Shown here piece by piece: positions 47,264 through 49,694 of a stretch of DNA of 50,796 nt (positions are counted from its first letter, which is position 1; the number at the start of each line of letters is the position of its first letter). This DNA is from an uncultured Oscillospiraceae bacterium (GTDB lineage: Bacteria; Bacillota; Clostridia; Oscillospirales; Oscillospiraceae), in NCBI GenBank assembly GCA_947627285.1, contig CANQVL010000014.1:1-50796 (forward strand). Reading direction: 5' to 3'. The position numbers and the translations under genes were made by a program. A model generated the notes under the pieces. The model ran no database searches, was not told the origin of the DNA, and was given only the letters and a program-made list of their open reading frames with translations.

Positions 47264-47300
47264 AAAAAATCCGTGAATTTTGGAAATTCACGGATTTTTT
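47264..47300. terminator. bidirectional terminator, 17-bp perfect palindrome
   Basis: AAAAAATCCGTGAATTT at 47264-47280 pairs perfectly with AAATTCACGGATTTTTT at 47284-47300 around TGG. It has an A run on one side and a T run on the other. Its core CCGTGAATT recurs in the palindrome at 48658-48693. Confidence 0.9.
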
Positions 47301-47304
47301 AGCC

Positions 47305-47335
47305 TGTCAAAAAAGGGCTACGCCCTTTTTTGACA
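47305..47335. repeat. 14-bp perfect palindrome
   Basis: TGTCAAAAAAGGGC at 47305-47318 pairs with GCCCTTTTTTGACA at 47322-47335 around TAC. It follows the terminator by four bases. It could be a second terminator or a dispersed palindromic element. Confidence 0.75.
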
Positions 47336-47367
47336 AAGGGAAACGTGCGGAAGACCTTTTCCGGGGG

Positions 47368-47398
47368 TTGTCAATTGCCTGTTTGTCAAAAATATAAT
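47368..47398 (+). promoter_or_regulatory. candidate promoter for the glycosyltransferase gene
   Basis: TTGTCA at 47368-47373 and a perfect TATAAT at 47393-47398 are 19 bases apart, longer than ideal. Transcription would start near 47405 and include the next palindrome in the leader. Confidence 0.4.
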
Positions 47399-47431
47399 TA
47401 CGCAAGAAAGTGCTGTACAAATCATCTTTCA

Positions 47432-47468
47432 TATGGTAAAATATCCGCTGTGCGGATATTTTACCATA
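47432..47468. repeat. 17-bp perfect palindrome in the glycosyltransferase leader
   Basis: TATGGTAAAATATCCGC at 47432-47448 pairs perfectly with GCGGATATTTTACCATA at 47452-47468 around TGT. It lies 17 bases before the glycosyltransferase ATG. There is no T run beyond the arm itself, so an attenuator, operator or dispersed repeat is possible. Confidence 0.8.
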
Positions 47469-47485
47469 CGAAAGGTTGTGGCGAT

Positions 47486-48587
47486 ATGAACATGGAGCAG
47501 GTTTCGGTTATTATACCGGTTTATAATGCCGAAAAATTTTTGAGGCGATGCCTGGATTCACTACGTAATCAAACCTATCGGAATATAGAGGTTTTAATGG
47601 TCGATGACGGTTCGACAGATCGAAGCCTGAAAATTTGCAAAGGCTTTGCGGCGAAGGACGGTCGTTTTAAGGTACTCCAAAAGCAAAACGGCGGCGCGAG
47701 CAGCGCGCGGAACCTGGGACTTACAAATTCTGGGGGGGGGGTACGTATTATTTGTAGACGCGGACGATTGGCTGCCTCTCGGTGCGGTCGAGACGCTTTG
47801 GAAAAAGAGGCAGGAAACGGACGCCGATTACGTGGGCGGGAATATTATGCAGATTTTCCTTCTCAAATCTGCCGAGCTTCATTTGTTTGATGAAGCCTCG
47901 TTTGTAAAAACAGATGTTCGGGCTTTTGATAAATTCTTTACATCAAATTTCCTCGCGTATGCGCCATGGGCTCATTTGTACAAAAATCAGATCATTCAAG
48001 CTGCCGGGCTGAAATTTAAAACAGATATCGTATTTGGTGAGGATACATTATTTAACTATCAATATTTGCAGCATTGCAGCCGTATTGCGACGACAGGTGA
48101 AGTGGTCTATTATTATAATCGTGTTAATTGGGGGTCCATCACAAAAAACTATTATCCGAGCAGAAACAAGGATACATTATTTTCGCTTAATGAACGAAGA
48201 AAGCTGTATTCAGGCGAACTGACAGAAGCTCAGTCATATAAAGAAGATGATCAGCTCCTGTTTACTTTTTCTGTCCTATGTCAGGATTATGCTTTTTTCC
48301 TCTCAAAGGATTCAGCGGTGGAAAAGCTTCGGGAAACTCACTTGATGTACCGCCCGCTTTTGGATGGCGTAGGGACCTATAACGGAGATATTGTCCAATC
48401 CCAGCCCATTAAGTCCTGGCTGGATTATCGGCGCTTTTTAGATGAATCCGACTACGAAGGGCTGTATGAATATTTTCGCGGTCAGCCTAATTTTCGCACG
48501 TTTGAGAGACGCTATCCCCTGGCAAAGAGCATTTTGACGCGCTTGCGAATATTCCAGCTGTTTCAATTGAGAATCGGATACAGATGA
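47486..48587 (+). pseudogene. family 2 glycosyltransferase, frame broken at a G10 tract
   Basis: The two halves together encode a GT-A fold enzyme of about 366 residues. The first half, from ATG 47486, has QVSVIIPVYNAEKFLRRCLDSL, VLMVDDGSTDRS and GGASSARNLGL. At 47732-47741 there is a run of ten G; removing one base continues into YVLFVDADDWLPL, with the metal-binding DxD-type motif in the expected place. As written, the first frame stops at 47890 and the rest is read from another frame to 48587. Base composition is clearly more AT-rich than the neighbours, suggesting transfer. It may be an off state of a phase-variable gene, a true pseudogene, or a homopolymer sequencing error. The donor sugar and acceptor are unknown. 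Confidence 0.85.
47732..47741. repeat. run of ten G inside the glycosyltransferase
   Basis: A homopolymer of ten G directly before the codons for YVLFVDADD. Nine G would keep the glycosyltransferase in frame. Such tracts mediate slipped-strand phase variation in other bacteria. Confidence 0.9.
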
Positions 48588-48657
48588 TTTTTCGGCTTGT
48601 CAAGATATTGCTGCGGGCGGCAGATACGCGCGACAAACGGAGAATACACGATTATGT

Positions 48658-48693
48658 AAAATCCCGTGAATTCCGGTGAATTCACGGGATTTT
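48658..48693. terminator. bidirectional terminator after the Asn/Gln-rich peptide gene and the glycosyltransferase
   Basis: AAAATCCCGTGAATTC at 48658-48673 pairs perfectly with GAATTCACGGGATTTT at 48678-48693 around CGGT. It lies between two convergent genes and can serve both. It shares its core with the palindrome at 47264-47300. Confidence 0.88.
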
Positions 48694-48729
48694 TCGGAAC
48701 TTTTCCTTTAAAAAAGAGTTTGCCTTTTT

Positions 48730-48837
48730 TTACTTTTGCTGGTTGTTCTGCTGATTGTTGTTCTGCTGCTGGTTCTGGTTGCTGCGGTTCTGCTGGTTGT
48801 TCTGCTGCTGGTTCTTCTGGTTGTTCTGGTTGCTCAT
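48730..48837 (-). CDS. 35-residue Asn/Gln-rich peptide, candidate forespore gene
   Basis: A very short gene on the minus strand. AGGAGGTG (48845-48852) lies seven bases before the ATG at 48837. Of 35 residues, 14 are Asn and 15 Gln; the others are Met, two Ser, two Lys and one Arg. There are no hydrophobic or acidic residues apart from the initiator Met. A terminator stem begins about 37 bases after the stop, and a sigma-G-like promoter lies upstream. Asn/Gln-rich small proteins include gamma-type acid-soluble spore proteins of Bacillus, but there is no alignable similarity that I can claim. A longer reading of this DNA in another frame begins at a poorly placed start and runs through the terminator. 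Confidence 0.78.
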   Translation of the reverse strand: MSNQNNQKNQQQNNQQNRSNQNQQQNNNQQNNQQK

Positions 48838-48862
48838 TGATTTTCACCTCCTGAGGTGACTA

Positions 48863-48892
48863 TATTATGGCACAAAAATATTCGGATTATAC
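48863..48892 (-). promoter_or_regulatory. sigma-G-like promoter for the Asn/Gln-rich peptide
   Basis: Read on the minus strand, GTATA (48888-48892) is followed after 18 bases by CATAATA (48863-48869). Both parts match the Bacillus sigma-G pattern GHATR-N18-CATNHTA exactly. The predicted start is about 20 bases before the ATG. Confidence 0.6.
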
Positions 48893-48956: not shown

Positions 48957-49694
48957 ATGTCAGGACATTCCAAATGGCATAACATACAGAAGACCAAGGG
49001 CGCGGCAGACGCCAAGAGGGCTCAAGCCTTCACCAAGATCGCCCGCGAGATGATAGTCGCGGTGAAGGAGGGCGGCGGCAGCGCCGACCCCGCCAACAAC
49101 TCGCGTCTTGCCACGGTGGTCGCCAAGGCAAAGGCGGCGAATATGCCCAACGACAACATCAAGAGGACCCTGGAGAAGGCCGCCGGCAGCGCCGGAGGGG
49201 ACAACTTCGAGTCCGTCACCTATGAGGGCTACGGTCCCGAGGGCGTGGCGGTCATAGTTGATGCCATGACCGACAACCGCAACCGCACGGCATCCGAGGT
49301 CCGCCACCTCTTTGACAAGTACGGCGGGAACATGGGCGCCGCCGGGTGCGTGAGCTGGTCCTTTGAGAAAAAGGGCGTCATCGTCATTGACAACGAGGAC
49401 GAGGACTACGACGAGGACACCGTTATGATGGACGCGCTGGAGGCGGGCGCCGAGGATATGAGCGCCGAGGAGGAGACCTTTGAAGTCTACACCGACCCCG
49501 ACAGCTTCCCGGCGGTGCTGGAGGCGCTGGAGGGGAAGAAGTACAAATTCGTCTCCGCCCAGGTGGAGATGGTGCCCCAGAATTACGTCAAGCTCACCGA
49601 CGAGGAGAACATCAAAAAGTTTGAGAAGATGCTGGAGCTCATGGACGACAACGACGACATCCAAAACGTCTGGCACAACTGGGAGGACGCGTAA
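48957..49694 (+). CDS. yebC: YebC/PmpR family protein
   Basis: A protein of 245 residues with the family opening MSGHSKWHNIQKTKGAADAKRAQAF when read to residue 25, then NNSRLATVVAKAKAANMPNDNIKR and YEGYGPEGVAVIVDAMTDNRNRT. These proteins were described as transcription regulators and more recently as factors that help ribosomes through difficult sequences. The product is acidic in its middle part (EDEDYDEDT). GGAAGGAAGG lies before the ATG, and the gene has its own promoter and terminator. It marks the end of the core region before the mobile-element scar. Confidence 0.96.
   Translation: MSGHSKWHNIQKTKGAADAKRAQAFTKIAREMIVAVKEGGGSADPANNSRLATVVAKAKAANMPNDNIKRTLEKAAGSAGGDNFESVTYEGYGPEGVAVIVDAMTDNRNRTASEVRHLFDKYGGNMGAAGCVSWSFEKKGVIVIDNEDEDYDEDTVMMDALEAGAEDMSAEEETFEVYTDPDSFPAVLEALEGKKYKFVSAQVEMVPQNYVKLTDEENIKKFEKMLELMDDNDDIQNVWHNWEDA

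What the first reader, a model, noticed from the sequence alone, without database searches (positions are those of the whole stretch)
48730..48892. A 35-codon gene whose product is 29/35 Asn or Gln, with a sigma-G-type promoter
The sequence shows a full gene unit on the minus strand: GTATA-N18-CATAATA, then AGGAGGTG seven bases before ATG, 35 codons, then a perfect terminator stem. The product has 14 Asn, 15 Gln, two Lys, one Arg and no acidic residue. Sigma-G drives forespore genes such as small acid-soluble spore proteins. Inference: an unannotated, polar, basic spore-core or spore-surface peptide, possibly a new class of small spore protein. Gene finders would usually miss it or prefer an out-of-frame reading.
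Basis: partly seen in the sequence, partly recalled or inferred. Interest (0 to 1): 0.78.

Follow-up and report, generated by a model that had tools for sequence, protein, structure and literature searches.

The report
Asparagine/glutamine-rich small spore-protein gene
A gut bacterium carries a tiny gene for a protein made almost only of asparagine and glutamine, with a promoter of the developing-spore type, and genes of the same kind turn up in many other Clostridia, a group thought to lack this sort of storage-type spore protein; whether it is made in spores is untested.

Summary
A 35-codon gene (48730-48837, minus strand; 14 Asn, 15 Gln, no acidic residue) has a forespore-type promoter, a strong ribosome site and a terminator. 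It looks like a real gene: 19 of the 27 same-genus yebC loci that cover the place (window included) carry it, with promoter, ribosome site and frame kept and the peptide varying in length (33-48 aa). Single-base codon differences are 937 synonymous to 260 not. A promoter matrix built from the genus's alpha/beta-SASP genes recognises its promoter. Profile searches found the same kind of gene, in differing neighbourhoods, across the order and class: 26 of 43 such ORFs, found with a promoter-blind model, have at most one mismatch to the sigma-G/sigma-F consensus, against 5% of controls. No Pfam or NCBIfam model matched it or nine diverse relatives. Best reading: a forespore-made, disordered, nitrogen-rich spore protein that works like the gamma-type SASP (SspE) of Bacillus, a type reported absent from Clostridia, but unrelated to it in sequence. 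Expression, place in the spore and function are untested; sigma-G cannot be told from sigma-F here.

The parts
48888..48892 (-). -35 element GTATA of the forespore-type promoter
   Evidence: (G and ATA invariant in the 19 aligned sequences)
48863..48869 (-). -10 element CATAATA, 18 bases after the -35
   Evidence: same layout as alpha/beta-SASP promoters of the genus
48844..48859 (-). dyad TCACCT-CAGG-AGGTGA that would pair with the ribosome site near the mRNA 5' end; of 19 genus sequences 12 keep all six pairs' arm, 5 keep ACCT only, 2 (L006, L020) lack it
48845..48852 (-). ribosome binding site AGGAGGTG, 7 bases before ATG
   Evidence: invariant in the 19 aligned sequences
48730..48837 (-). 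35-codon ORF for the Asn/Gln-rich peptide, stop included
48658..48693 (-). terminator: perfect 16-bp stem, 4-base loop; A and T runs at both ends, so it could serve both converging genes
   Evidence: read
48957..49694 (+). yebC/TACO1 gene, divergent neighbour, the synteny anchor used here

Best explanation
The gene makes a small spore protein in the forespore. Steps: (1) RNA polymerase with sigma-G and/or sigma-F transcribes a short single-gene mRNA in the forespore (inferred from promoter match and conservation). (2) The mRNA is translated from a strong ribosome site near its 5' end (sequence shown; translation inferred from codon conservation). (3) The peptide, 83-90% Asn+Gln in 18 of 19 genus members and with almost no hydrophobic and no acidic residue, stays unfolded and is packed into the spore core (inferred). 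(4) After germination it is broken down and its amide-rich residues feed early outgrowth with nitrogen and amino acids, as hypothesised for gamma-type SASP in Bacillus (inferred by analogy). It works like a gamma-type SASP but does not belong to that family by sequence. My rough odds: real translated gene 0.97; forespore expression 0.85; spore-core reservoir as the main role 0.4. Genes of the same kind occur across the class Clostridia.
For: Conserved unit: 19 of 27 covering loci, window included. Selection on the peptide: 937 synonymous to 260 non-synonymous single-base codon differences (pairwise sums, not independent events); 648 of 740 residues N/Q, none acidic. Promoter: a matrix from 16 alpha/beta-SASP promoters of the genus scores the 19 at 6.8-19.4 against a background mean of -2.0 and 99th percentile of 9.45, at nearly one position. 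Class-wide: an N/Q-rich short ORF in 24 of 29 best class-search loci other than the window (two borderline) and in 25 of 27 best order-search loci outside the genus. Of 43 ORFs found by the promoter-blind model, 26 have at least 0.917 of the sigma-G or sigma-F consensus positions, against 5% of 140 control ORFs and 3% of shuffles; 23 of 40 without the model's training members, 19 of 30 with one per genus. 23 of 25 class genomes with a confirmed ORF (window's included) have SpoIVA against 208 of 291 overall, one-sided Fisher P 0.01. SspE is hypothesised to be an amino-acid reservoir, and Clostridia were not known to have gamma-type SASPs (PMC8452069, passages; PMC3533761, passages).
Against: No transcript or protein data at all. 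The window's own promoter scores 8.9, under the background's 99th percentile (so do L004, L007, L021). 8 of 27 covering genus loci lack the gene, one with foreign DNA right after the -35 and seven with more distant YebC (83-89%), so it is dispensable. In 6 of 13 named family genomes, Flavonifractor plautii among them, no member was confirmed among the loci read. With no acidic residue the peptide lacks the usual site of the SASP protease GPR (site recalled). A 35-aa peptide is a small store unless very abundant. The consensus letters used are recalled; a search for them found nothing. 17 of 43 R2-found ORFs miss that threshold, and the SASP-only matrix separates the wider set less well: 13 of 43 reach 9.12, as do 7.1% of controls.
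Confidence: 0.5

Rival explanations
1. Forespore protein with a physical role: an unfolded, uncharged polar filler that shapes water and glass formation in the dehydrating core and shields other macromolecules, rather than a food store.
For: Same promoter and composition data. Composition is kept while sequence and length vary, as expected for a bulk solvent-like role.
Against: A store predicts the same pattern; nothing here separates the two. Absence in 8 of 27 covering genus loci speaks against an essential protectant.
Confidence: 0.27
2. Aggregating or gel-forming peptide, prion-like, acting at a spore layer, in the manner of the Asn-rich C. difficile protein GerG.
For: Asn-rich low-complexity proteins are described as aggregation-prone; GerG, about 30% Asn, gels in vitro (PMC5241399, passages).
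Against: GerG is made in the mother cell under sigma-E and is larger, whereas these promoters are forespore-type. Lys, Arg or His interrupt or end the N/Q runs in the genus. The structure prediction is uninformative: one model a lone helix at mean pLDDT 88, the four others 60-67.
Confidence: 0.1
3. Nucleic-acid-binding minor SASP: spaced Lys/Arg on a polar chain bind spore DNA or RNA.
For: In the genus 2-4 Lys/Arg and no acidic residue per peptide; net basic on average outside it (224 K+R against 83 D+E); same promoter layout as alpha/beta-SASP.
Against: Few charges for a binder, and some members outside the genus end in acidic stretches (for example L250). No match to a known family.
Confidence: 0.08
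4. The transcript works as RNA, or the repeat is a neutral codon expansion, and the peptide has no function.
For: Low-complexity, length-variable sequence; a small dyad near the 5' end.
Against: Single-base codon differences are mostly synonymous (937 to 260), AAC and AAT are mixed, ribosome site is invariant, and the overlapping GTG frame is closed in 17 of 19.
Confidence: 0.04

Closest known systems
Gamma-type SASP (SspE, Pfam PF04259) of Bacillus
   Same: Small, hydrophilic, rich in Asn and Gln (recalled), made in the forespore; hypothesised amino-acid reservoir (PMC8452069, passages).
   Different: No model match: 0 of 34 genus genomes (B. subtilis control rings) and none for 10 diverse peptides at E up to 10. 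Under half the model's 84 positions in the window, no acidic residue in the genus, no GPR site (site recalled). SspE is reported absent from the clostridial genomes then sequenced (PMC3533761, passages).
Alpha/beta-type SASP (PF00269)
   Same: Promoter layout in the same genus: G[ACT]ATA, 17-18 bases, then a -10 such as AATNATA or CATAATA.
   Different: No sequence match; the genus's alpha/beta genes mostly encode 65-aa PF00269 proteins.
Minor SASPs and putative clostridial SASPs (SspH, Tlp, CD1290, CD3220.1)
   Same: Small forespore proteins; the C. difficile pair is reported under sigma-G (PMC3789822, passages).
   Different: No Pfam or NCBIfam match of ours to any family. Their sequences were not compared here; that they are not N/Q-only is recalled.
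GerG of C. difficile
   Same: Asn-rich low-complexity spore-linked protein.
   Different: Sigma-E, mother cell, larger, reported from C. difficile only (PMC5241399, passages).

Membership tests
Gamma-type SASP (SspE) | Sequence match to the family model PF04259 | tested here: not met
   no match; 0 of 34 genomes
Gamma-type SASP (SspE) | Rich in Asn/Gln, poor in hydrophobic residues (feature recalled) | tested here: met
   648 of 740 residues N/Q in the genus
Gamma-type SASP (SspE) | GPR cleavage site with acidic residues (feature recalled) | tested here: not met
   no D or E in any of 19 genus peptides
Gamma-type SASP (SspE) | Abundant in the spore core and degraded on germination | not testable with these tools
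   needs spore proteomics
Alpha/beta-type SASP | PF00269 domain | tested here: not met
Forespore (sigma-G/sigma-F) regulon | Promoter of the forespore type, conserved | tested here: met
   4 of 19 genus promoters, the window's included, lie below the background's 99th percentile
Forespore (sigma-G/sigma-F) regulon | Sigma-G rather than sigma-F | tested here: inconclusive
   forms near either consensus occur among relatives; the two are close to each other in C. difficile
Forespore (sigma-G/sigma-F) regulon | Expression lost in sigG or sigF mutant | not testable with these tools
   no expression data
GerG | Sigma-E controlled, Asn/Met/Pro-rich repeats, large protein | tested here: not met
   promoter type and composition differ

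The most novel reading that the evidence does not exclude
Clostridia have a class-wide, unannotated kind of forespore protein defined by composition (Asn and Gln) and promoter, not by sequence: short disordered chains that fill the place of the gamma-type SASP of bacilli as the spore's nitrogen store or core matrix, arisen independently and found in many different gene neighbourhoods.
Probability: 0.4. Interest if true: 0.8.

Novelty: new variant of a known kind. Interest (0 to 1): 0.63.

Why it matters
The papers consulted hold that Clostridia lack gamma-type SASPs, leaving open what feeds outgrowth in the spores of gut commensals and what else fills their core. A widespread gene kind with fitting promoter and composition, hard to see for family models and similarity searches because it is short and low-complexity, makes that question testable in cultured species (Sporobacter termitidis DSM 10068, Pseudoflavonifractor sp. 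MSJ-30). It also shows a way to find genes conserved in composition and control but not in sequence.

Tried and rejected
Direct peptide search (2 of 60 genomes, one of them the window's own) and protein-profile search (1 of 394, missing even the window's own genome) failed, presumably through compositional bias; their negatives were not used. Covariance models without base pairs (R1 with promoter; R2 without) worked. Their raw hit counts (70 of 300, 171 of 295, 159 of 291, 31 of 252 genomes) contain false matches and are not used as prevalence. Of 70 R1 loci outside the genus that were read (25 automatic, and 45 fetched of 46 others; one in G542 was left out), 21 held an N/Q-rich short ORF. 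Non-members among the best R2 loci: L225, L235, L263 (an alpha/beta-SASP), L267, L268, L270, L271. The count 24 of 29 includes two borderline cases (L260 with an S/R/D-rich tail, L266 open at the contig end) that a stricter scan did not confirm; the count 25 of 27 includes four ORFs of only 33-36% N+Q (L226, L231, L233, L236). The scans use one start per ribosome site and miss some cases (L058, L138); one search repeats R1, yebC and named-genome loci without that limit and adds only L138.

Considered and rejected: the 94-aa GTG frame (closed in 17 of 19); a leader peptide (nothing follows on the same strand before the terminator); sigma-70 transcription (one search lists five matches, four on the other strand, none at the conserved elements); a 5' hairpin as general control (absent in L006 and L020; in the window 17 of 200 shuffles fold as well). 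The structure prediction was set aside as uninformative. Literature: search listings 41, 42, 43, 46, 52, 69, 72, 73 showed no paper on Asn/Gln-rich forespore peptides of Clostridia; only the held open-access library was searched, and of the papers only passages were seen (PMC3533761, PMC3789822, PMC7438776, PMC8452069, PMC5241399).

Full report
What is there. The minus strand of 48658-48892 holds a complete small transcription unit: GTATA, 18 bases, CATAATA, AGGAGGTG, seven bases, ATG, 35 codons, TAA, and a perfect 16-bp terminator stem. The product has 15 Gln, 14 Asn, 2 Lys, 1 Arg, 2 Ser and no acidic residue. It sits head to head with yebC/TACO1 (48957-49694) and converges on a family-2 glycosyltransferase gene; beyond that lies a SipL/SPOCS-domain gene, of a spore-linked family. 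The window lies in a 2.8-Mb, 95-contig genome with SpoIVA; its nearest named relatives by YebC are uncultured Oscillospiraceae from 'Lapin' (presumably rabbit) metagenomes, YebC 95-98% identical.

It is a gene. YebC was used as anchor in 34 genomes of the genus, the window's own included: 28 hits, of which 27 loci cover the region. Nineteen, the window among them, carry the ORF in the same place (18 with ATG, L016 with GTG), 33-48 codons long, 70-90% N+Q. Eight lack it: L018, where other DNA begins right after the -35 element, and L022-L028, with YebC 83-89% identical. Promoter, ribosome site and start are among the most conserved columns; the peptide varies by gain or loss of N/Q codons. Over the 19 there are 366 N, 282 Q, 50 K+R and no D or E in 740 residues; single-base codon differences are 937 synonymous and 260 not (pairwise sums, so not independent); the overlapping GTG frame is closed in 17 of 19.

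Forespore promoter. Alpha/beta-SASP genes (PF00269), classical forespore genes, were found in 24 of 34 genus genomes and their upstream regions read: mostly G[ACT]ATA, 15 bases, GGCAATNATAA. A matrix from 16 of the 22 sites found (those of one spacing, a duplicate dropped) scored the 19 N/Q promoters 6.8-19.4, at nearly one distance from the start; random 70-mers of the same loci have mean -2.0 and 99th percentile 9.45. Four of the 19 fall below that percentile: L003 (the window, 8.9), L004, L007 and L021. C. [quoted passage not shown]

Beyond the genus. A sequence-only model of promoter plus start (R1) hit 70 of 300 family genomes; of 70 loci outside the genus that I read, 21 hold an N/Q-rich short ORF behind a ribosome site. 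Of the 80 named yebC loci, nine have such an ORF: six of the window's genus (L133-L138), Sporobacter termitidis DSM 10068, a second Sporobacter bin and isolate SIG495, all in front of yebC; the other 71 held loci show none. Elsewhere the neighbours differ: rubrerythrin in four loci, infC in two, efp in one. A second model without the promoter (R2, from 30 members) was run over 295 genomes of the order, 291 of the class and 252 of the phylum. Reading the best loci: 25 of 27 in the order outside the genus (four of them only 33-36% N+Q) and 24 of 29 in the class (two borderline) hold such an ORF, but 2 of 29 in the phylum set, mostly from outside the class and at weaker E-values (L305 and L306, with 0.92 and 1.0 of the consensus; a third, L302, is doubtful). 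So the kind is common in Clostridia and rare outside it in this sample. In 13 named family genomes, 7 gave a confirmed member (S. termitidis, the Sporobacter bin, SIG495, Pseudoflavonifractor sp. MSJ-30, two Candidatus Faecousia, Candidatus Pelethomonas) and 6 did not among the 30 loci read.

Promoter test on the wider set. For 60 distinct N/Q ORFs (at least 38% N+Q) outside the genus, 83% reach a matrix score of 8 against 4.8% of 566 long ORFs of the same loci and 9.4% of shuffles; some of these were found with R1, which includes the promoter. For the 43 in loci brought in by R2, which does not, 26 reach at least 0.917 of the sigma-G or sigma-F consensus positions (letters recalled), that is at most one mismatch, against 5% of 140 controls and 3% of shuffles, P about 3e-17. 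Thirteen of the 43 match fully. Without the R2 training members it is 23 of 40, and 19 of 30 with one ORF per genus. With the SASP-only matrix 13 of 43 reach 9.12, as do 7.1% of controls and 5.7% of shuffles. Relatedness makes the P values optimistic. Of 25 class genomes with a confirmed ORF (window's and the two borderline ones included), 23 have SpoIVA against 208 of 291 overall (one-sided P 0.01); the two without, G782 and G856, have genus mates that have it.

What it does. No Pfam or NCBIfam model matches it or nine diverse relatives at E up to 10; the gamma-SASP model finds nothing in 34 genus genomes. The best reading is a forespore-made, unfolded, amide-rich peptide stored in the spore core and used on outgrowth. 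Shown: sequence, conservation, promoter type. Inferred: translation, timing, place, use. It works like gamma-type SASP, which is hypothesised to be an amino-acid reservoir and was not known from Clostridia (PMC8452069 and PMC3533761, passages), but fails that family's sequence and cleavage-site features, so it is not filed there. Main rival: a physical filler or protectant of the core.

Novelty. A new variant of a known kind (small forespore spore proteins), unusual for being conserved in composition and control rather than in sequence. The literature searches covered open-access papers only.

Noticed in passing
window 47732-47741: A run of 10 G inside the family-2 glycosyltransferase gene splits it into two overlapping frames (47330-47890 and 47646-48587). 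It may be a phase-variable tract or an assembly error.
   Followed up: no
window 47300-48600: The glycosyltransferase gene lies between the SPOCS gene and the N/Q gene; in the closest relative L004 (YebC 99%) the stretch after the N/Q gene reads like the end of the SPOCS gene, so the glycosyltransferase looks inserted.
   Followed up: partly
G000 whole genome: No alpha/beta-SASP (PF00269) match in the window's own genome, nor in 9 others of 34 in the genus, although its nearest relative G005 has one. Could be an assembly gap.
   Followed up: no
L018 upstream of yebC: Other DNA replaces the N/Q gene directly after the -35 element, leaving half a promoter.
   Followed up: no
L065, L079, L081, L091, L122, between -10 and ribosome site: A shared motif GTACTCA lies between the -10 and the ribosome site in several genera (a looser form in L089, L067, L276), possibly a regulator site.
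   Followed up: no
L247, L253, L257: Three genomes of one genus encode 48-50 aa chains that are mostly Asn and end NNFCDQK, an even more extreme form.
   Followed up: no
window 48844-48859: The ribosome site sits in a small hairpin near the predicted mRNA 5' end in most of the genus (-5.4 kcal/mol here, 17 of 200 shuffles as good), weak or absent in L006 and L020.
   Followed up: partly
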